Of a stretch of 64,000 nucleotides of DNA, positions 33,887-45,511 are shown piece by piece (positions within the stretch are counted from its first letter, which is position 1; every line of letters begins with the position of its first letter). The DNA lies in NCBI GenBank assembly GCA_947458455.1, contig CANGYJ010000013.1:1-64000 (forward strand), read 5' to 3'. Both the position numbers and the translations under genes were made by a program. The stretch comes from Verrucomicrobiaceae bacterium. Lineage in GTDB: Bacteria; Verrucomicrobiota; Verrucomicrobiia; Verrucomicrobiales; Verrucomicrobiaceae. The notes below the pieces were generated by a model, which was not told the DNA's origin, made no database searches, and saw nothing but the letters and a program-made list of their open reading frames with translations.

Positions 33887-33949
33887 TGCGTCGCTTTGTT
33901 TTCCCTCGTCACTTCACTCCGATTTCCAGCGCTTTCTTTTCCGCACGCC

Positions 33950-36900
33950 ATGAAACGTCTCACCTCATACTTCTCACGTCTCACCACGGCTACCCATTCG
34001 GCCCTACGCCCCATCCTCTCTCTTCTCGTCCTCTCCCAGTCTCCTCTTCTCGCTCTTCCCGTTGACCTCGCAGCCCCTCCCGGCGGCCTTGGCCCCACCA
34101 GTGACCAGGGCGCTGCCATCCATTGGGTCGAGATGGTGGAGATTGATTTTGGCGGTGGCATGACGTTCCCGTTACGCATGTCCTTCCTCAGCAGCCGTGA
34201 TGAGGGGGATGGTCGTGATTTCGGCCCCGGTCACTGGCGCACGCCGCTTCACGACTCCCGCCTCATGACAAAGACGGACGGTCGCTGGCCACTTTTGCTG
34301 CCTTGCGGTAAGGTCATGGGCCTCTTCTCCAAAGCCGGAGAACCAGGAGCATGGGCCACGGCGGATGAAGAATGGATCGCCCGGCCCAAAGGAGCAAACA
34401 CCCTCGTCACGCGTGAGGATGGCTGGGAGCTGGAGTTCAGCGCCAAAGGATACCTCATTCGGCTCAAGGCAGACAATGGCCGCACGTTACTCTGGACAAG
34501 GGATGCCGATGGCTCCCTGCGCAGCGTGGCAGAATTCGCTGGCGGCAAGCTTCTCGCCCCGGCCTACAGTGTCACGCGTGATCCTGCCACCCGCCGGGTG
34601 AAGTCCCTCCGTGTCAGCACCCGCATTGGCTCCAAAGAATGGCGCTATGGCTACGATGCTTCGGGCCGCCTCACCTCCATCGCCTTCCCGGACACCTCTG
34701 TGGTAAAAAACACCTACGGCAGCCGTGAAGACGGGCAGCCCTGGATCAGCATCACCGGGCGGGATGCCATCGCCACCACCCTCACCTGGCATAAAGACAA
34801 CGGCAGCCTCCTCCACGACGGCGTCTGGAGCTACGACATCCAGCCCCAGCCCGGCAATAACCCCGTCATGCGCCGCACCGGCCCCCACGGCGAGCTGGAG
34901 ATCCAGCATGACGATGCCCTCAACCACCGCACCCTCTTCACCGCCGCTGAAGGCACCCAGACCATCAAGCAGCGTGTTACCTCCGGCCCGGCCAAAGGAA
35001 AGCTTGAGAGCATCACGCGAATCCTCTCCTCCAACCAAGAACCAAAAACCAAGAGCCAGAAACAGGTTCTGTACTCCGCCACCTACGACTCCCGCGGCCT
35101 TCTCGAAACCGATACAAACGCACTCGGCCACAAAACAACCCACGCCTACACCCTGCATGGCTCCAGCATTCACACCGGCATCAAAACCCACATCACCACG
35201 AAACCTCTGGGAAGCAAAACAACTCGGGAATTTGATGCGCACGGCAACCTAATCGCTGAAACCAACGCCCTCGGCCACACCTTCCGTCAGGAATACGACG
35301 ACCAGAACCGCCTCCTAAAAATCACTGGCCCCGACGGCGCCGTCCTCGAATCGGTCACTTACACCGCCAGCGGTCGCATCCAAACCCGCATGGATGCCAT
35401 CGGTGCCACTACCACCTATAGCTACGACCGCGAAGGTAACCGCACCTCCATCACCGACGCCCTCGGCCACACCACCAAGCACGAATACGACGTTCGCGGC
35501 AACCGCACTGCCACCACCGACGCCCTAGGTCACACAACCCGCTACGAGTTCGACGAAGGCGGCAGACTCACCGCGACCATCCTACCCCCGGTGGACGGTG
35601 GACAGTCAGCAGTAGGCAGTGGTCAGTCCACCGCCAACAGCCAACCGCCGAGCACCACCCGCTACACCTACGACTTCGCCGGCCGCAAACTCACCACCAC
35701 GGCCCCTGACGGCACCGTCACCGAAGCCAACACCTATGACGCCCTGGGCCGTCTCACCTCCCGCACCAACGCCCTCGGCCACACCACCCGCTACGAGTAC
35801 GACGTCAAACGTGGCAGCACCGGCTGCCTCTCGTGTTCCACCAGCGGCCTCCCCACCCGCATCATTTCTCCCACTGGCCGCATCACGGAGCGCAGCTACG
35901 ACGCCGACCGCCACCTGCTGTCTGAAACCATTGCCGCTGACGCGCCATCCGCCGCCACGACCGCTCATGTGCATGACTCGGCGGGCAATCGCCTCGCCAC
36001 CACTGATCCCCTTGGTCGCATTACCACCTTCCAATATGACAGCGCAGGCAACCGCACCAAGATCATCCACCCAGACAAGACAGAAATAACCTTCACCTAC
36101 AACGCCTTGGGCCAGATGATCGCCGAAACCAACGAACTCGGCCACACCACCAAGAAGCAATACGACCCCTACGGCAACCTCGTCGCTGTCACCACCCCCG
36201 AAGGCCACACTACCCGCACGTTGTTCGGAGAAAGTGGAACAGGTTTGCAACCTGTGGTCTCCCCAACCGGCGCAGCCGCAAACGCCACTCCAAGCTCCAA
36301 GCCCCAAGCTCTCAGCTTGCGCCCCGGTTCCGCCGCTCGCCACCTCCCCCACGCCATCATCTCTCCCTCCGGCATCACCACCGCGTTCTACTACGACCTC
36401 CTCGGCCGCAAAATCACTGTCACCAAGGCCCCAGGCACGCCTGAAGCAGCCACGACAACCCACCAATTCGATGCCGTTGGCAACGAAATCGCCTCTCTCA
36501 CCCCCACCGGCATCAAAACCACCCACACCTACGATGCCCGCCGCCGCCGCATCGCCACCACGGATGCCATCAACCGCACCTGGACCTTCACCTACACCGA
36601 CACCGCAGGCCCCAGCGGCGCTCCTCCCTGCTGCGGAGCCGACCCCGCCTCCAACTCCCGTGCTGCCACCACCATCCACCCCGACGGCACCCGCGACGAA
36701 AAACTCTACAACGCCCTCGGCCAACTCATCGAATCCCGCGACGCCAACATCACCACCGCCAACGACGAACTAAGAACCAAGAACCAAGAACAAAAATCCG
36801 GCATCCGATACGCCTACGACGAAGACGGCCGGCTCACTACCCTCACCGACGCCCGCGGCAGCGTGACCAAGTGGCGCTACGACGCCCGTGGCAAACTCCA

Positions 36901-38905
36901 ATCCAAAACCTACCCCGACAACACCGTCGAAGCCTACGAGCACGACGCCGCCGGCCAGCTTGTCTCCCGCCTCCGCCCCAACGGCGTCAGCGCCAGCTAC
37001 ACTTACTCCCCACGCGGCCAGCTCCTCACCATCCGCTGGAGCGATGACAAAACCGAACCCAGCACCTTCGCCTACGACGCCGCTGGCAACATGACCCTCG
37101 CTGAAAACCACAGCGCCAAAATCACCCGCACCCACACTCCTGAAGGCCGCCTGCTCCAAGAAACCCAGCGAATCAACTACGCGACCGTCCTTCCTCCAGG
37201 CTCCACGCCCCAAGCTCCAAGCCCCTTCGTGGCCGAAGTAGGCTACCAATACAACCCAGACGGCAAACTTTCCCAACTCCTCTACCCCGACCAATCCACC
37301 ATCTCCTACCTCTACAACGAGCGCGGTGATCTCGAAGAGGTTCAGGACTCAGAGCAAACTCTCCACCCACAACTCAAAAATCAAAACTACCGCTACTCTC
37401 GCCGCTCCGATGGCCGCATTACCAGCCTCTCGATGCCCAACGGCACGACAACAACGCGCACTTACGACCCGGTCGGTCGCCTCAGCGAAATCCAGCACAC
37501 GGCCCCCGATGGCAGCATCCTCTTCAGCGAGGCCAGCCGCTATGATGACCGCAACCGCCGCACCGCACGAGTGCATGGCGGCGGCAGCGCCGACCTCTTC
37601 GCCTACGACCCCGCCGGCCAAGTCACCGCCGCTGCTTACGGGCAAAGTGGTGCTGCCGTCCAGGCTGATCGAGACAACCCGAAACCTGAAACTTGGAACT
37701 TAGAACCTAATCAAATCTTCGCCTACGATCCGGCCGGCAACCGCACCTCATTCACAGATAACGACACAACCACCAACTACGCCGCGAACGAAGCTAACCA
37801 ATACACCTCAATTACCGCTGGCACCGGCATTCTCGAACCACAGTTCGACCCCGTCGGCAATCTCCTACACGACGACCAAAACACCTGCACCTGGGACAGC
37901 GACATTCACCTCCTCTCAGTAGAAACCAAAGTCCCAAATCAAAAATCTCAACTCAGCAATTTCCGATATGACGCCCTCCACCGCCGGGTTGCACGAACTG
38001 AATCCGCCACAAACACCACGACTCTCTTCGTAATGGACGGCTGGAATGTAATTTTCGAGTTCAGTTCAAGAACAAATCAGGAATTAATTCAGTCTCTCCG
38101 CCTCGCTTGGTCGGAAGACATCTCGGGCACTCTCCAAGGCGCTGGCGGCATCGGTGGGCTAGTTTCAACGCAGAATAAAGAAGACGGCTACATCAGTTTT
38201 TTCCACTGCGATAGCAACAGCAACGTCGCGCACATAAGTGACGTTAAAGGAAAAAGTGTTGCCCAATACCAGTACGACACCTTTGGCAAAACCAAACTGG
38301 CCAAAGGTTCCATCGCAATGAAGAATCGATACCAATTCAGCACTAAACAAATCGAGCAGGGGAACGGGTTGATGTATTATGGCTACAGGTACTACTCTTC
38401 AAGTCTAGGAAGGTGGGCATGTTGTGATCCTATCAAAAATTATTCCTTTGTTGCAATTTACTCCCAAGGTGAGGCAAGGTCAAAGTACACTGCGGCGCAC
38501 CTTTCCATAGAGTTTGCTTCCGTTGACTTAAACCTTTATGCCGCTATGGAAAATTCAGCGGAGAATAATCATGATTTGTTGTGGCTGATTGGACTCGGAT
38601 TGATTGTGGAGGCAATGCAAGCTTATTTTGATGATCCCTCTAACCCGGTGGCCGAAGCTGAAGACTTGGACGACTGTTTACGTCGCTGCAACGATGATCA
38701 TCAAGAGGATACCGCTTGGGATACAGCAGCTTGGGGGGCGGATATGTTTGAGTCTGCCGCTGCCTCAGCAGCACATCCAATAGCTGGAGCAATAGACGCA
38801 GTCGTCTCAACCTGCATTTGGTTTGCGAAGATCGACGATAACAGAGAGGCTTTTGATCTTTGCAGGCAAGCATGTAATCGTGCATTCCAAGAACCCTTAC
38901 CCTAA
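33950..38905 (+). CDS. Secreted Rhs/YD-repeat protein with a variable C-terminal domain
   Basis: 1651 residues from the ATG at 33950. A signal peptide (RPILSLLVLSQSPLLALP) is followed by a DUF6531-like region and dozens of YD repeats (e.g. YDREGNRTSITDALGHTT, YDPVGRLSEIQ). The Rhs core ends with MYYGYRYYSSSLGRWACCDPI at about residue 1485. The last ~157 residues (from KNYSFVAIYSQ) are unlike the core, more AT-rich, and contain paired Cys (CLRRCNDDH, DLCRQACNR). Rhs/WapA-type proteins carry toxin domains after such a core; this domain's activity is not recognisable. Several linkers between YD repeats are encoded by tandem 7-bp repeats. Confidence 0.9.
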   Translation: MKRLTSYFSRLTTATHSALRPILSLLVLSQSPLLALPVDLAAPPGGLGPTSDQGAAIHWVEMVEIDFGGGMTFPLRMSFLSSRDEGDGRDFGPGHWRTPLHDSRLMTKTDGRWPLLLPCGKVMGLFSKAGEPGAWATADEEWIARPKGANTLVTREDGWELEFSAKGYLIRLKADNGRTLLWTRDADGSLRSVAEFAGGKLLAPAYSVTRDPATRRVKSLRVSTRIGSKEWRYGYDASGRLTSIAFPDTSVVKNTYGSREDGQPWISITGRDAIATTLTWHKDNGSLLHDGVWSYDIQPQPGNNPVMRRTGPHGELEIQHDDALNHRTLFTAAEGTQTIKQRVTSGPAKGKLESITRILSSNQEPKTKSQKQVLYSATYDSRGLLETDTNALGHKTTHAYTLHGSSIHTGIKTHITTKPLGSKTTREFDAHGNLIAETNALGHTFRQEYDDQNRLLKITGPDGAVLESVTYTASGRIQTRMDAIGATTTYSYDREGNRTSITDALGHTTKHEYDVRGNRTATTDALGHTTRYEFDEGGRLTATILPPVDGGQSAVGSGQSTANSQPPSTTRYTYDFAGRKLTTTAPDGTVTEANTYDALGRLTSRTNALGHTTRYEYDVKRGSTGCLSCSTSGLPTRIISPTGRITERSYDADRHLLSETIAADAPSAATTAHVHDSAGNRLATTDPLGRITTFQYDSAGNRTKIIHPDKTEITFTYNALGQMIAETNELGHTTKKQYDPYGNLVAVTTPEGHTTRTLFGESGTGLQPVVSPTGAAANATPSSKPQALSLRPGSAARHLPHAIISPSGITTAFYYDLLGRKITVTKAPGTPEAATTTHQFDAVGNEIASLTPTGIKTTHTYDARRRRIATTDAINRTWTFTYTDTAGPSGAPPCCGADPASNSRAATTIHPDGTRDEKLYNALGQLIESRDANITTANDELRTKNQEQKSGIRYAYDEDGRLTTLTDARGSVTKWRYDARGKLQSKTYPDNTVEAYEHDAAGQLVSRLRPNGVSASYTYSPRGQLLTIRWSDDKTEPSTFAYDAAGNMTLAENHSAKITRTHTPEGRLLQETQRINYATVLPPGSTPQAPSPFVAEVGYQYNPDGKLSQLLYPDQSTISYLYNERGDLEEVQDSEQTLHPQLKNQNYRYSRRSDGRITSLSMPNGTTTTRTYDPVGRLSEIQHTAPDGSILFSEASRYDDRNRRTARVHGGGSADLFAYDPAGQVTAAAYGQSGAAVQADRDNPKPETWNLEPNQIFAYDPAGNRTSFTDNDTTTNYAANEANQYTSITAGTGILEPQFDPVGNLLHDDQNTCTWDSDIHLLSVETKVPNQKSQLSNFRYDALHRRVARTESATNTTTLFVMDGWNVIFEFSSRTNQELIQSLRLAWSEDISGTLQGAGGIGGLVSTQNKEDGYISFFHCDSNSNVAHISDVKGKSVAQYQYDTFGKTKLAKGSIAMKNRYQFSTKQIEQGNGLMYYGYRYYSSSLGRWACCDPIKNYSFVAIYSQGEARSKYTAAHLSIEFASVDLNLYAAMENSAENNHDLLWLIGLGLIVEAMQAYFDDPSNPVAEAEDLDDCLRRCNDDHQEDTAWDTAAWGADMFESAAASAAHPIAGAIDAVVSTCIWFAKIDDNREAFDLCRQACNRAFQEPLP
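35032..37960. repeat. Tandem heptanucleotide repeats inside Rhs linkers (eight sites)
   Basis: At 35032-35065, 35590-35629, 36286-36315, 36767-36797, 37196-37226, 37362-37390, 37681-37711 and 37921-37960 short arrays with 7-bp periodicity interrupt the YD repeats. Unit types differ between sites: GAACCAA, GGACAGT/GGTCAGT, CAAGCTC/CAAGCCC, GAAACCT, AAATCAA. All lie between YD motifs and keep the frame. A palindrome ACAGGTT-TGC-AACCTGT at 36239-36255 lies beside one of them. Confidence 0.85.
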
Positions 38906-41959: not shown

Positions 41960-42991
41960 TCACTCCTCCATCCGCCCGAGGTAGGTCACGGCGTTGGTTT
42001 CGCTGTTGCGGCGGGTCACGACGATGATTTCGGCACGCTTATCTCCCACCCAGCCCACGCTGGTGATGCGGCGGAGGGTCGTGTCGTCATCGTTCAAGAT
42101 GGCGCGGAGGGCGTTCAGCTTGTCGCCAGTGAGTCCGAGGAGTTGATAGGCCTCCTCGTCGCGGATGCGGCGGTCGTCCTCGGTGCCGGGAATGCCATCG
42201 CCCCCGTCACGCTCGCGGATGAAGCGGGTCACGTCGTTCTCCGAGGTGCCGGTGATGGCAAGCAACACGTCTTTGAAGACGGTGCGCAGGTCGATCTGGC
42301 CTTCGCCATAAACGCTGAAGTATTCGCGCCAGTCCGGCTTCTTGCGGTCCACCGCATCCATGCCGCGCACGAGGAGCATCTCATCTACGCGAAGGAAGCC
42401 CTGGTTTCGCGGTGAATCAAAGATGCCGAGGTTTTGGTAATACTCCTCCTCCGCACCGTTGGCTCGGGCGTTGTCGTCATTGTCGATCCAGTCCGCCAAA
42501 GAATCAGCGGCGATGCTGGCCTCCTCGGCGTTGAGCTGCCAGTGAACGAGAAGGTTGTAGATGGCTTCGCGGAGACGTTCGTCCGTGGCGTAGTTGATGG
42601 GGATGCGGGCGCCTTCGTAGTTGATGACCACGTCAAAGCCACTGTCCGTGCCGATCTTCTGCTTCAAAACAAGATCGCCACGACGTGTATTCGGATGCAG
42701 GCCCACCGCCAGGCCGCTTTCGGCAAGGTGCAGCGCTTTGAATTGATACGCTGCCTGCACACTTTCCGCCGCGCTGGCGCGAATGTATTCCACCACACCC
42801 AAAACGGTGACGGACATCAGCAGGATGGCCCAGATCATGAGCATGAGAGCAGAGCCTTGATTGGAGCGGTGAGGGGGACTGAAAACTGAAAACTGAGAAC
42901 TTAGAACTGAAAATTGGCTGGCGCAGGCTTTCGCGTGCCGGGTGGCATGCGAGGCGTCCCCAATTTTAAGTCTCCAATTTTCAGTTTTCAT
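41960..42991 (-). CDS. gspK: Type II secretion minor pseudopilin GspK
   Basis: 343 residues. After the leader, GSALMLMIWAILLMSVTVLGV gives the hydrophobic N-terminal helix with Gly before the mature start; GspK normally lacks the Glu at +5 and so does this one. GspK-like features follow: DSLADWIDNDDNARANGAEE and a helix-rich C-terminal domain with LNALRAILNDDD. The first ~45 residues, upstream of the processing site, are encoded by an inverted repeat of ACTGAAA-type heptads (42878-42999), the ATG included. It is the last gene of the gsp operon here and starts 20 bp after gspJ. Confidence 0.88.
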   Translation of the reverse strand: MKTENWRLKIGDASHATRHAKACASQFSVLSSQFSVFSPPHRSNQGSALMLMIWAILLMSVTVLGVVEYIRASAAESVQAAYQFKALHLAESGLAVGLHPNTRRGDLVLKQKIGTDSGFDVVINYEGARIPINYATDERLREAIYNLLVHWQLNAEEASIAADSLADWIDNDDNARANGAEEEYYQNLGIFDSPRNQGFLRVDEMLLVRGMDAVDRKKPDWREYFSVYGEGQIDLRTVFKDVLLAITGTSENDVTRFIRERDGGDGIPGTEDDRRIRDEEAYQLLGLTGDKLNALRAILNDDDTTLRRITSVGWVGDKRAEIIVVTRRNSETNAVTYLGRMEE

Positions 42992-42999
42992 TTTTCAGT
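42878..42999. repeat. Heptad inverted repeat forming the gspK start
   Basis: Plus-strand ACTGAAA-type heptads (ACTGAAA, ACTGAAA, ACTGAGA, ACTTAGA, ACTGAAA) at 42878-42912 are mirrored as TTTTCAG/CAATTTT units at 42961-42999. A GC-rich hairpin (CGCGTGCC / GGCATGCG) lies between. The gspK start codon (42989-42991) lies in the right arm. Confidence 0.85.
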
Positions 43000-43011
43000 G
43001 CGTTCGAGTTT

Positions 43012-43884
43012 TCAATTTCCACCGCCTTGAGGAGGTCCACCACCTTCGCGGTTTCCGCCACCGCCACCGTCGCCTCGACCACCACCGCCTCCATTACCAC
43101 GACCACCGCCGCCGCCTGCTGCACTGGGTGTGTTTGTTGAATTCGAGGCGCTTGTTGAACCCGTCGTGCTTCGTGGTGCTTGGCCTGCGGTGATGGTGAT
43201 GACTGGCACGCCAAAGACCATGCGGATGGGCAGCGTGCGGTTTTTGAGGGTGAGGCTGCCCTCGATGAGATCAGGCCACTCCGTCTTGCTCCATTCCTCA
43301 TACCACGTTTTGTCCTTCTCGACGTAAAAGCGCCATTTGAAGGCGATCACATCCGGCAGCAGCGGCATCCAGTAGCGACCCTCTTCGTCGGGGGCGTAGA
43401 TGCCGGTGGTCTCCTGGCGGATGCCGTTTTGCGGATCGTTCTCCGGGATCAAATCCTCGCGGGAGAGGCTGAGGTAGTGAATGGGCATGCCGGCCTCGTC
43501 GGCGACCTCGTCCGGGTGCGGGCGGAGGCGCAGGATGGTATCCTTGAAGGTGATGGGATGCGCTCCGGCGGGAAAACAATCCGGCGAGCCCGCGATGGTC
43601 AGCTCCTGGATCACTGGCTCGGTCGTTTGAACCAGTTTGAGCGACAGCGTGGCCGTGGCTGGCAGCGAGGCAAAGGCGCGACGGCTTAATTCGATGAAGC
43701 GATTCACCGAATCACTCTCCCGCTGCGTCCGCTCGATCTCCGCTGCGGATTGCACTGAGCCACGGATGATCGCAAACAGCGTCACTGTGATCATCGACAG
43801 CAGCGTGATGCCGATGACGACCTCGATGAGCGTGAAGGCGTGCGCCCCCCGCCGCGCTTTATTGCTGGGCGGGTTTGTGAACAT
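43012..43884 (-). CDS. gspJ: Type II secretion minor pseudopilin GspJ
   Basis: About 290 residues from the ATG at 43884; a start at 43917 adds 11 residues. The prepilin signal HAFTLIEVVIGITLLSMITV has Glu at +5 and Ala before the cleavage site. GspJ-like beta strands follow (GRYWMPLLPDVIAFKWRFYV). The C-terminus is a Gly/Arg-rich tail (GGGGGRGNGGGGGRGDGG), not usual for GspJ. It overlaps gspI by 26 bp. Confidence 0.85.
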   Translation of the reverse strand: MFTNPPSNKARRGAHAFTLIEVVIGITLLSMITVTLFAIIRGSVQSAAEIERTQRESDSVNRFIELSRRAFASLPATATLSLKLVQTTEPVIQELTIAGSPDCFPAGAHPITFKDTILRLRPHPDEVADEAGMPIHYLSLSREDLIPENDPQNGIRQETTGIYAPDEEGRYWMPLLPDVIAFKWRFYVEKDKTWYEEWSKTEWPDLIEGSLTLKNRTLPIRMVFGVPVITITAGQAPRSTTGSTSASNSTNTPSAAGGGGGRGNGGGGGRGDGGGGGNREGGGPPQGGGN

Positions 43885-44302
43885 AGACGCTGAGGGTGGC
43901 CTCCTCGGGGATGCCATTGAACTCGGAGGTGGCTTTGATGGTGACGTTGTAGAGATCCGGCAGCGTGCTGCCGTTCGTGGTGCGCAGGCTCACGGGCTCG
44001 GTGGAGCTCGTGTAGGTGATGCCGTAGGTCGTATCCATGGAGGAGGTGCTCATGTCCGTGAGCGGCTTCCGCCGGATTTCTTCGAAGAAGTTCCGCATGC
44101 CGATGCGGACGATTTGATCCCGCTTGAGCAGGTTGGCGGTATCGAGCGATTGATTGAGCGCTTTCGCCAGTCCGAGCACCGCGATGGAGAAAATGGTGAT
44201 CGCGAGCACGAGTTCGAACAGGATGTAGCCCCGTACACCGCCTCTCCGAGGCGGACGCTGGGATGATCCGCCTCGGAGAGGCGGTGTACATGAGGGCTTC
44301 AT
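43859..44302 (-). CDS. gspI: Type II secretion minor pseudopilin GspI
   Basis: 147 residues from the ATG at 44302, which overlaps the gspH stop by 4 bp. The mature helix starts after Gly: GYILFELVLAITIFSIAVLG, with Glu at +5. The leader before it (PLRGGSSQRPPRRGG) is encoded by a 57-bp palindrome with 23-bp perfect arms at 44233-44289. The rest is GspI-like (GLAKALNQSLDTANLL, FFEEIRRKPL). Minor pseudopilin I forms the tip complex with J and K. Confidence 0.82.
   Translation of the reverse strand: MKPSCTPPLRGGSSQRPPRRGGVRGYILFELVLAITIFSIAVLGLAKALNQSLDTANLLKRDQIVRIGMRNFFEEIRRKPLTDMSTSSMDTTYGITYTSSTEPVSLRTTNGSTLPDLYNVTIKATSEFNGIPEEATLSVYVHKPAQQ
44233..44289. repeat. 57-bp perfect palindrome encoding the GspI leader
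   Basis: Two 23-bp arms (44233-44255 and 44267-44289), perfect reverse complements, flank an 11-bp loop. Each arm is also self-complementary around CGCCTC...GAGGCG. It lies wholly in the gspI leader region between the start codon and the processing site, in frame. Confidence 0.95.
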
Positions 44303-44985
44303 CGTAGATCGACGGATTCTTTGACGATGTCGGCCGTGAGGGCGGCGAATTCGACATCGAAGGTGGAGCTGTCTCGCTCGACGTGGACCTTCAGCGGCTG
44401 GCAGACGCCGCTGGGCTGGAAGACCCACAGCTTCACCAAATCGCCCTCGAGGTAGGTGGTGTCGGTGTCGAACCAGAATTGCATCCCCAGCTTCATGTCC
44501 GGCGGAGCCTCGTAGTTCTGCGTCCAGTGCTCGTCATACTTCGGCGGAGGCGGTGCAAGGGTGAGCTGGGTGGTCTTCGTGACTCCGCCGCCGCTTTCGA
44601 GGTCGTTCTTCTCGATCTCCGGCTGCTCGGCGGGTGGGTTTTTGCTCGTTTCGATGAGTTCGATCAGCTCCGCCCGCGTGAGATAGGGATTCGAGTAACG
44701 TGAGGCTGTGAAGCCGGTGGCATGCAATGCCACCTGATAAGGCCTTTTCTCCGTCATCGCCCGCATGCGTGCCTCGCGAGCCAGTTTCACCAGGGCCGCC
44801 ACCGGTTCGCGGGCGATTCGCTCGTCGTTGAATCCCTTCAGCATCGGAATCGTCGCCGCCGCGAGCACCGCGACGATGGTGAGAGCGATGATGATTTCGA
44901 CGAGCGTGAATCCTGATTGAAATCCAAGTTGCCCGGTCTTGAGGCGCAGACCGGGTTTGGGACTGAATCTGGAATCAAGATTCAT
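44299..44985 (-). CDS. gspH: Type II secretion minor pseudopilin GspH
   Basis: 228 residues. A 25-residue leader is followed by SGFTLVEIIIALTIVAVLAA, with Gly before Phe and Glu at +5. The rest has GspH/FimT-like strands (REARMRAMTEKRPYQVALH) and an insertion rich in Pro and Glu. Part of the leader (PKPGLRLKTGQ) is encoded by a palindrome around 44932-44955. It lies 11 bp after gspG and overlaps gspI by 4 bp. Confidence 0.85.
   Translation of the reverse strand: MNLDSRFSPKPGLRLKTGQLGFQSGFTLVEIIIALTIVAVLAAATIPMLKGFNDERIAREPVAALVKLAREARMRAMTEKRPYQVALHATGFTASRYSNPYLTRAELIELIETSKNPPAEQPEIEKNDLESGGGVTKTTQLTLAPPPPKYDEHWTQNYEAPPDMKLGMQFWFDTDTTYLEGDLVKLWVFQPSGVCQPLKVHVERDSSTFDVEFAALTADIVKESVDLR
44915..44976. 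repeat. Palindrome in the GspH leader
   Basis: A perfect 8-bp stem (CCCGGTCT 44932-44939 / AGACCGGG 44948-44955) with an 8-bp loop has imperfect outer arms that both end in GATT-type sequence (44915 and 44976). It encodes the middle of the gspH leader. The central stem is certain; the outer arms are approximate. Confidence 0.65.
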
Positions 44986-44995
44986 AAATCAGGAA

Positions 44996-45457
44996 TTACT
45001 TGGCGGGTGCTCCACGCTTCCAATTGCCGAGATCGTCATCCGTGCCGTCTTTGCCATCGGGACCCATGGACCACACGTCGTAGTCGTCCTTCGATTTCTG
45101 GGCGGGGATGCGATACTTGTATTCCTGGCCCCAGGGGTCCTTCGGCATGTCCTTCATGAAGGCGCGGTAGTTTTCGGGGATGGGCTCGATGGTGGGTTTT
45201 TCGACGAGGGCCTTGATGCCCTGCTCGGTGGTGGGCTTGCGCAGGGCGCGGGACTCGTAGCTTTGCAGCGCGAGGCCGATGGCCTGGAGGTCGCTGTCCA
45301 CGCGGGTGTCCTTGGCGGAGTCGATCTGGCCTTTGAGGAGGTAAATCGAGCCGGAGGCGAGGATGGCGATGATCGTCAGGGTGATGACGATTTCGATCAG
45401 CGTGAAGGCGGGGGATTTATGATTTACGATTTTTGATTTATGATTTCGCATGTTCAT
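44996..45457 (-). CDS. gspG: Type II secretion major pseudopilin GspG
   Basis: 153 residues. PAFTLIEIVITLTIIAILAS is the prepilin helix with Glu at +5 and Ala before the site. GspG signatures follow: LQAIGLALQSYESRALRKPTTEQGIKALV, PKDPWGQEYKYRIP and a calcium-loop-like YDVWSMGPDGKDGTDDDLGNW. The leader MNMRNHKSKIVNHKS is encoded by five exact-period 7-bp repeats (45412-45446). It forms the shaft of the T2SS pseudopilus. It lies between gspF and gspH. Confidence 0.93.
   Translation of the reverse strand: MNMRNHKSKIVNHKSPAFTLIEIVITLTIIAILASGSIYLLKGQIDSAKDTRVDSDLQAIGLALQSYESRALRKPTTEQGIKALVEKPTIEPIPENYRAFMKDMPKDPWGQEYKYRIPAQKSKDDYDVWSMGPDGKDGTDDDLGNWKRGAPAK
45412..45446. repeat. Five-copy heptad array encoding the GspG leader
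   Basis: On the plus strand GATTT recurs at exactly 7-bp spacing at 45414, 45421, 45428, 45435 and 45442, with two variable bases between. On the coding strand the unit is AAATCNN. It ends a few bases before the processing-site codons. Confidence 0.92.
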
Positions 45458-45483
45458 GGCGGTTGGAGGGTGGTGAATAAATG

Positions 45484-45511
45484 GAAACTTGGAACCTGAA
45501 ACTTAAAACTA
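45484..45511. repeat. Heptad array at the gspF stop codon
   Basis: Units AAACTTG, GAACCTG, AAACTTA and AAACTAG lie in tandem in the 51-bp gap between gspF and gspG. The gspF stop (TAG on the minus strand, 45509-45511) is part of the last unit, so the array has probably replaced the original end of gspF. Confidence 0.75.

What the first reader, a model, noticed from the sequence alone, without database searches (positions are those of the whole stretch)
42878..45457. Pseudopilin leaders of the gsp operon are encoded by repeats
Four of the five pseudopilin genes have leaders built from small repeats: gspG (heptads), gspH (palindrome), gspI (57-bp perfect palindrome) and gspK (inverted heptad repeat). 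All are in frame and lie upstream of the prepilin cleavage site, so the mature proteins are untouched. Leaders are removed by the prepilin peptidase and need only basic charge and a small residue before the cut, so they look like tolerated landing sites. Palindromic elements inside ORFs are known in Rickettsia; this leader preference is one I do not recall being described.
Basis: partly seen in the sequence, partly recalled or inferred. Interest (0 to 1): 0.85.

Follow-up and report, generated by a model that had tools for sequence, protein, structure and literature searches.

The report
Repeat-built leaders of secretion pseudopilins
In this bacterium and its relatives, small DNA repeats (often 7-base units in hairpin pairs) sit in frame inside the throw-away leader of secretion pseudopilins and hardly ever in the finished part, so repeat DNA seems to be tolerated there and sometimes to become the leader.

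Summary
The repeats are real and mostly as described. In gspG, gspH, gspI and gspK they lie upstream of the prepilin cleavage site, in frame, with no later start codon that would skip them. Two kinds are present. gspI carries an inverted pair of a dispersed REP-like palindrome (perfect 23-bp arms, 11-nt spacer). gspG, gspK and the start of gspH carry degenerate 7-bp repeats (heptads), in gspK as an inverted pair. Among 33 genus operons, lag-7 segments (score >=10) occur 30 times in 10.3 kb of leaders and 0 times in 103 kb of mature coding; repeat-free orthologues are the majority at every site. In the home genome (40% sampled, home-made gene calls) heptads are about 11 times denser in Sec-like leaders than in mature coding, and densest in short co-directional gene gaps. 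At least one Sec-like leader is a single inverted heptad: purine arm charged, pyrimidine arm hydrophobic. Best reading: gene-junction repeats that leaders tolerate and sometimes adopt. The REP-like palindrome shows no leader preference. Heptads, in-frame palindromes and a mobile element forming part of a signal peptide (Yersinia) are in print; inverted heptads as leaders I found in no paper listed by eight searches.

The parts
44996..45457 (-). gspG, major pseudopilin; leader MNMRNHKSKIVNHKSPA|FTLIE
   Evidence: TIGR01710 116.5 bits over cut-off 88.85; leader
45414..45446 (-). heptad array in the gspG leader; same letters in the close relative G029
   Evidence: lag-7 score 18; G029
45479..45510 (.). 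heptad array in the gspF-gspG gap
   Evidence: lag-7 score 11
44299..44985 (-). gspH pseudopilin; leader MNLDSRFSPKPGLRLKTGQLGFQSG|FTLVE
   Evidence: N_methyl 28.7 bits over 21.2; TIGR01708 29.6 bits, below cut-off 80
44911..44994 (-). gspH leader hairpin: outer stem plus inner 8-bp palindrome 44932-44955
   Evidence: RNA fold -31.6 kcal/mol, z -4.35; inner palindrome 1 match in genome
44965..44996 (-). degenerate heptads over the gspH start codon
   Evidence: lag-7 score 9
43859..44302 (-). gspI pseudopilin; leader MKPSCTPPLRGGSSQRPPRRGGVRG|YILFE; start overlaps gspH stop (ATGA)
   Evidence: TIGR01707 21.8 bits, below cut-off 44.35
44233..44289 (-). inverted pair of a dispersed REP-like palindrome (23-bp arms, 11-nt spacer) inside the gspI leader
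   Evidence: 12 matches at 10 sites, control 0; RNA fold -61.9 kcal/mol, z -11.06
43012..43884 (-). gspJ pseudopilin; start overlaps gspI end; no repeat in its leader here
   Evidence: T2SSJ 18.9 bits, below cut-off 28; fold z -1.56
41960..42991 (-). gspK pseudopilin; 46-aa leader before G|SALML
   Evidence: T2SSK_1st 52.5 bits over 26.2
42878..42999 (-). inverted heptad pair forming most of the gspK leader; the ATG lies in the first arm
   Evidence: 40-nt arms, 80%; lag-7 scores 22 and 12; RNA fold -50.4 kcal/mol, z -6.15

Best explanation
Short repeats that live at gene junctions, above all degenerate heptad arrays often arranged as inverted pairs (purine-rich arm first), insert or expand at the boundaries between co-directional genes. 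In coding DNA they survive mainly where the 5' end of the gene encodes a cleaved leader, because a prepilin or Sec leader needs only a start, some basic charge, for Sec a hydrophobic stretch, and a small residue before the cut. Period 7 is coprime with 3, so a heptad array reads the same cyclic 7-residue repeat in all frames; the pyrimidine-rich arm is stop-free and mostly hydrophobic, the purine-rich arm is hydrophilic and charged and can hold ATG and TGA. An inverted pair can therefore supply much of a leader in either orientation. In gsp, leaders have changed this way repeatedly; in gspI of this species a REP-like inverted pair did the same. Shown: presence, location, absence from mature pseudopilins, repeat-free orthologues, changes on the tree, arm order. 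Inferred: that they insert rather than grow in place, that tolerance rather than function keeps them, and that these leaders are translated and cleaved.
For: 33 genus operons, lag-7 >=10: 30 in 10,323 bp of leaders counted from the last ATG, 8 in 1,908 bp of gaps before them (gspG gap not counted), 0 in 102,978 bp of mature coding; control lags give 0-3 in leaders plus gaps. 26 of 164 leaders have a heptad (>=9) downstream of the last possible start. Fewest changes on the quick operon tree: G 3, H 7, I 4, J 1, K 4; in the closest trio (support 100*) gspI holds a REP-like pair in G000 and different heptads in G029 and G014. Home genome sample, per kb at >=10: intergenic 0.454 (89), Sec-like leader 0.300 (19), other first 35 codons 0.160 (17), mature 0.027 (48), prepilin-like leader 1 in 752 bp; from predicted Sec start to cleavage, 10 segments in 41.3 kb against a mean of 0.4 (max 2) in 100 codon permutations. 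Purine arm first 21, pyrimidine first 2, mixed 8 of 31 pairs; among the 22 intergenic ones 14, 1 and 7. Arm translations. L078:8275-8363: Sec-like leader MRNGEWRMTNGRWRMLAAAFCILHSAFGIHA from one pair, its ATG overlapping the upstream stop.
Against: gsp leaders exceed even short co-directional gaps of the home genome (2.1-fold, p 0.0015; species are not independent and other genomes may carry more heptads), which plain tolerance does not predict. First 35 codons of genes without a predicted leader are also raised (0.160/kb), in part by over-extended starts. 48 heptads lie in sequence called mature, 7 of them in one Rhs gene. No transposase or insertion footprint was found.
Confidence: 0.68

Rival explanations
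1. The leader repeats are functional mRNA hairpins that set the translation of each pseudopilin (stoichiometry control), and are kept by selection.
For: Leaders of gspI, gspK and gspH fold far better than shuffles (z -11.06, -6.15, -4.35); 15 of 33 gspH leaders hold an inverted repeat better than all 30 shuffles, K 6 of 29, I 4 of 20, J 2 of 8, G 1 of 33; the gspH-gspI junction and the L078 gene have ATGA stop-start overlaps.
Against: 138 of 164 orthologous leaders lack a heptad downstream of their last start; arm sequence differs between sister species; gspG leader folds weakly (z -1.61).
Confidence: 0.15
2. Insertion bias: a mobile or copying process targets gene starts or co-directional junctions (for example ATGA or the purine-rich ribosome-binding region), regardless of what the leader tolerates.
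For: Short co-directional gaps carry 45 heptads in 32.8 kb against 44 in 153.8 kb of other gaps.
Against: Promoter-free short gaps may simply be the least constrained; I looked for no target duplications and saw no recombinase linked to heptads; REP-like copies land in ORF bodies as well.
Confidence: 0.25
3. Annotation artefact: the true starts lie downstream and the repeats are 5' untranslated sequence.
For: Many heptads elsewhere sit in gaps and create doubtful N-terminal extensions.
Against: In gspG, gspI and gspK no start codon lies between repeat and cleavage site; in gspH the ATG is the only one; 26 of 164 leaders have a heptad after the last possible start.
Confidence: 0.04
4. Chance or codon composition of leaders.
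For: Control lags are somewhat raised in Sec-like leaders too (0 to 0.063 per kb against 0.006-0.015 in mature).
Against: Lag 7 (0.300 per kb) stands about 5 times above the highest control lag there; codon permutation gives 0.4 against 10; REP control 0.
Confidence: 0.01

Closest known systems
Enterobacterial small mobile sequences RU-1/RU-2 (YPAL)/RU-3 in ORFs (PMC2759123, passages; PMC2229807, abstract, outline, section 9 and passages)
   Same: Small stem-loop repeats translated in frame; [quoted passage not shown] RU-1f fusions give predicted membrane helices and one predicted signal peptide
   Different: Defined 103-168 bp elements in enterobacteria, single cases found by similarity; no heptads, no prepilin leaders, and in the passages read no test of leaders against mature coding
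Heptameric tandem repeats: TAACTGA repeats of Beggiatoaceae, Cyanobacteria and Bacteroidetes (PMC4679880, passages), GGGAATC-type repeats of Xanthomonas and Nostoc (PMC4692102, passages)
   Same: 7-bp units, mainly between genes, the second kind preferring gaps between aligned ORFs; the first paper says insertion might be tolerated at the beginning or end of a protein, and lists one inverted and ten ORF-internal sets
   Different: Here many unit sequences, often inverted pairs with the purine arm first, read through as leaders; the term 'signal peptide' is found 0 times in both papers
Rickettsia palindromic elements (PMC2229807, section 9)
   Same: Palindromic repeats of 105-146 bp, in frame in 19 reading frames, tolerated
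   Different: Leaders are not mentioned in that section; other bacteria; sequences not compared here
REPINs and RAYT transposases (PMC3116915, passages)
   Same: The gspI element is an inverted pair of short palindromes forming a hairpin, dispersed in the genome
   Different: Core motif absent from the flanks of all 12 Y1_Tnp loci; several copies lie inside open frames; REPINs are described as extragenic
Random sequences acting as signal peptides (recalled, no call)
   Same: Leaders tolerate many sequences of the right make-up
   Different: Here the sequences come from a defined repeat class

Membership tests
REPIN | Inverted doublet of a short palindrome | tested here: met
   Perfect 23-bp arms, 11-nt spacer; further inverted pairs at G000:C4:340078 and, imperfect, C15:102797
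REPIN | Dispersed, over-represented family | tested here: met
   12 matches at 10 sites, control 0; in 4 of 56 genomes: G000 11, G029 6, G016 2, G032 1 matches
REPIN | Mainly extragenic | tested here: inconclusive
   Of 10 sites, gspI, L085, L086 and L089 lie in long open frames, L079 near the end of one, L081 in a 664-codon open frame that may not be a gene
REPIN | Cognate RAYT flanked by the same palindrome | tested here: not met
   0 of 12 PF01797 loci hold the core CCGCCTC-N2-4-GAGGCGG within the fetched flanks of up to 1.5 kb
Heptameric tandem repeats | Tandem 7-bp periodicity above control periods | tested here: met
   142 against 8-14 at eight control lags
Heptameric tandem repeats | Mainly intergenic, between co-directional genes | tested here: met
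   77 of 142 intergenic; co-directional short gaps densest among larger classes
Heptameric tandem repeats | One fixed unit sequence (e.g. TAACTGA) | tested here: not met
   Many unit sequences in one genome
Rickettsia palindromic element | Sequence homology to RPE | not tested
   No RPE sequence was fetched
Enterobacterial RU elements | Sequence homology to RU-1/2/3 | not tested
   No RU sequence was fetched
T2SS pseudopilin leader | Prepilin cleavage motif and GspG profile | tested here: met
   TIGR01710 over cut-off for G; N_methyl over cut-off for G and H, just under for J, below for I, none for K
T2SS pseudopilin leader | Leader is translated and cleaved | not testable with these tools
   Inferred from the absence of other start codons

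The most novel reading that the evidence does not exclude
Purine-first inverted heptads are a portable gene-start and export-signal cassette. Wherever one lands between co-directional genes it can supply a stop for the upstream gene, a start codon, a charged and often basic n-region and a hydrophobic core, in any frame and either orientation. By this route repeat DNA has repeatedly founded new Sec and prepilin leaders in Verrucomicrobiota and perhaps Planctomycetota.
Probability: 0.3. Interest if true: 0.8.

Novelty: new variant of a known kind. Interest (0 to 1): 0.55.

Why it matters
It gives a concrete sequence source for new export leaders and offers a reason why leaders change fast while mature proteins do not. 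Heptad units are coprime with the codon, so frame does not matter, and inverted pairs make strand irrelevant; both points can be tested in thousands of genomes. The known Yersinia case (a mobile element forming part of one signal peptide) would become one example of a wider route. It also warns that start calling and signal-peptide prediction in such genomes are confounded by repeats.

Tried and rejected
REPIN membership of the gspI element: not filed, because no RAYT flank carries it. gspH palindrome as a dispersed family: 1 match in the genome. A mis-called start: no alternative start codon in gsp. Leader preference of the REP-like family: not supported. Orthologues of the 795-aa Sec-like protein: 18 of 34 genomes match; alignments begin at residue 1 in G000 and G014 and between 10 and 31 in the other same-genus matches, so they do not cleanly show absence of the leader; not used as evidence. 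It has no Pfam family at E 0.001. Phylum scan of one GAATGAC pattern: 16 of 288 genomes match, but the reversed control (itself a heptad unit) matches in 6 other genomes, so only patchy spread is claimed.

Paper searches: listings seen; five papers opened in part (PMC2229807, PMC4679880, PMC4692102, PMC3116915, PMC2759123).

Weak points of the counts: my signal-peptide caller often ends the leader early, so some clear-looking cases (C1:119078, C2:380214, C5:293180) were not counted as leader. Conversely several of the Sec hits lie before a second possible start (e.g. C5:73719) and may be untranslated. Among the 31 inverted pairs two share one arm (C3:197675/197721), and the N-terminal pair C2:380214-380386 is really two leaders of divergent genes 113 nt apart, not one element. 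Inverted-repeat shuffles keep only base composition. The operon tree is the quick kind, with G016 on a long branch.
Full report
What is there. The gsp operon runs on the minus strand: gspE, gspF, then G (44996-45457), H (44299-44985), I (43859-44302), J (43012-43884), K (41960-42991). gspG passes its curated NCBIfam cut-off and gspK a Pfam one; H, I and J are named by weaker hits and gene order. In gspG, gspI and gspK no start codon lies between repeat and cleavage site, and in gspH the ATG is the only one, so the repeats must be translated if the leaders are.

Two kinds of repeat. The gspI arm belongs to a dispersed palindrome family: 12 matches at 10 sites of the home genome with up to 3 mismatches, none for the reversed control. 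With up to 2 mismatches it occurs in 4 of 56 genomes: G000, G029, G016 and G032. It resembles a REPIN, but none of 12 Y1_Tnp loci carries the core in its fetched flanks, and copies also sit inside long open frames (L085, L086, L089). The other kind is heptads: 142 lag-7 segments of score >=11 in 2.144 Mb (40% of the genome) against 8-14 at eight control lags; lag 8 (49) and the multiples 14 (98) and 16 (28) are also raised.

Where heptads lie in the operon. In G000 and 32 of 34 same-genus relatives (G020 and G022 were not fetched), lag-7 segments >=10 number 30 in 10,323 bp of leaders from the last ATG, 8 in 1,908 bp of gaps and 0 in 102,978 bp of mature coding. At >=8, three mature hits appear against 55 in leaders plus gaps. 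Of 164 leaders, 26 contain a heptad (>=9) after their last possible start: G 3 of 33, H 11 of 33, I 7 of 33, J 1 of 33, K 4 of 32. Leaders without any lag-7 segment >=8 from the first ATG on are the majority: 30, 20, 25, 31 of 33 and 27 of 32. On the tree of mature parts the fewest changes are 3, 7, 4, 1 and 4. G000, G029 and G014 form a 100* clade, yet their gspI leaders hold a REP-like pair, one set of heptads, and another set. The gspG heptads are shared by G000 and G029. gspJ is rarely hit; its last ATG lies inside the end of gspI in 32 of 33 operons.

Genome-wide test. With a home-made gene and signal-peptide caller (1,665 genes; 615 Sec-like, 12 prepilin-like), heptads >=10 per kb are: intergenic 0.454 (89 in 195.8 kb), Sec-like leaders 0.300 (19 in 63.4 kb), other first 35 codons 0.160 (17 in 106.3 kb), mature 0.027 (48 in 1,775.8 kb), prepilin-like leaders 1 in 752 bp. 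Sec-like leader against mature is 11-fold (p 8e-13). Restricting to predicted start to cleavage gives 10 segments in 8 genes against a mean of 0.4 in 100 codon permutations. Control lags give 0-4 segments each in Sec-like leaders. Short co-directional gaps are dense: 45 in 32.8 kb, 4.8-fold over other gaps. So the landing zone seems to be the junction between co-directional genes, with leaders as its translated edge.

Leaders made by inverted heptads. Of 31 inverted pairs in the sample, 22 are intergenic, 8 at N-termini and 1 internal; the purine-rich arm comes first in 21, the pyrimidine arm in 2, mixed 8. Intergenic pairs show the same order (14, 1, 7), so it is a property of the element rather than of leaders. 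Of four example heptads, purine arms translate to hydrophilic, charged residues (two of the four with in-frame stops), and pyrimidine arms are stop-free in all frames with positive mean hydropathy except in one frame of each of two. At L078:8275-8363 the pair gives MRNGEWRMTNGRWRM + LAAAFCILHSAFGIHA, a Sec-like leader whose ATG overlaps the upstream stop. Similar leaders were read at C2:236403, C2:505876, C4:282781 and C5:158002. Hydrophobic cores LFALCPSLFA and close variants from heptads were read in seven genes. No independent signal-peptide program was at hand.

Spread. The exact inverted GAATGAC pattern was found in 14 loci from 9 named genomes, whose titles name Pirellula, Planctomyces, Pirellulales, Phycisphaerales, Spartobacteria, Chthoniobacter, Prosthecobacter (two) and Verrucomicrobia; it is one unit sequence only, and records near the home genome may be left out. 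In several loci open frames begin inside the element, in some (L216, L220) it lies inside one; I did not test which are genes.

How it most likely works. Shown: repeats in leaders, absence at this threshold from mature pseudopilins, changes on the tree, enrichment in Sec-like leaders, junction preference, arm order. Inferred: heptads arise or insert at junctions, selection removes them from mature domains, leaders tolerate them, and some inverted pairs have become the leader. The strong hairpins (gspI z -11.06, gspK -6.15, gspH -4.35) leave a regulatory role open. That gsp leaders exceed even short co-directional gaps 2.1-fold is not explained by tolerance alone, though species are not independent.

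Compared with what is known. Heptameric repeats are known and mainly intergenic (PMC4679880, PMC4692102; passages); the first paper remarks that insertion might be tolerated at the beginning or end of a protein. In-frame palindromes are known in Rickettsia (PMC2229807, section 9), REPINs in Pseudomonas and others (PMC3116915, passages). [quoted passage not shown] passages). Eight paper searches listed none whose title or abstract, or the passages I read, report heptads as leaders or repeats in prepilin leaders; the library holds openly licensed papers only.

Noticed in passing
33896-38905 (+): An Rhs-repeat gene (1669 aa, 11 RHS stretches) carries 6 heptad arrays of score >=11 (7 at >=10) inside its body, e.g. 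35033-35058, 36761-36807, 37676-37709: an exception to bodies being nearly free of them.
   Followed up: partly
home genome sample: Period 8 is also over-represented (49 segments at score >=11 against 8-14 at control lags), mostly in gaps and N-termini by density.
   Followed up: no
L085, L086, L089: The REP-like palindrome from gspI sits inside long open frames (813, 737 and 750 codons), twice as an inverted pair.
   Followed up: partly
L064 (G009 gspI) and L045 (G013, upstream of gspK): Other direct duplications: VGVQALAC twice in the G009 gspI leader; a long stretch read through twice upstream of the gspK start in G013.
   Followed up: no
gspH leaders of G001, G002, G008, G017, G021 and others: A shared leader of the form CRSTK.SHDASD...RH.SF looks like an eroded ancient inverted heptad.
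   Followed up: partly
L078:8240-8440, L212-L225: The GAATGAC unit holds ATGA, an overlapping start and stop, so arrays can in principle end one gene and start the next.
   Followed up: no
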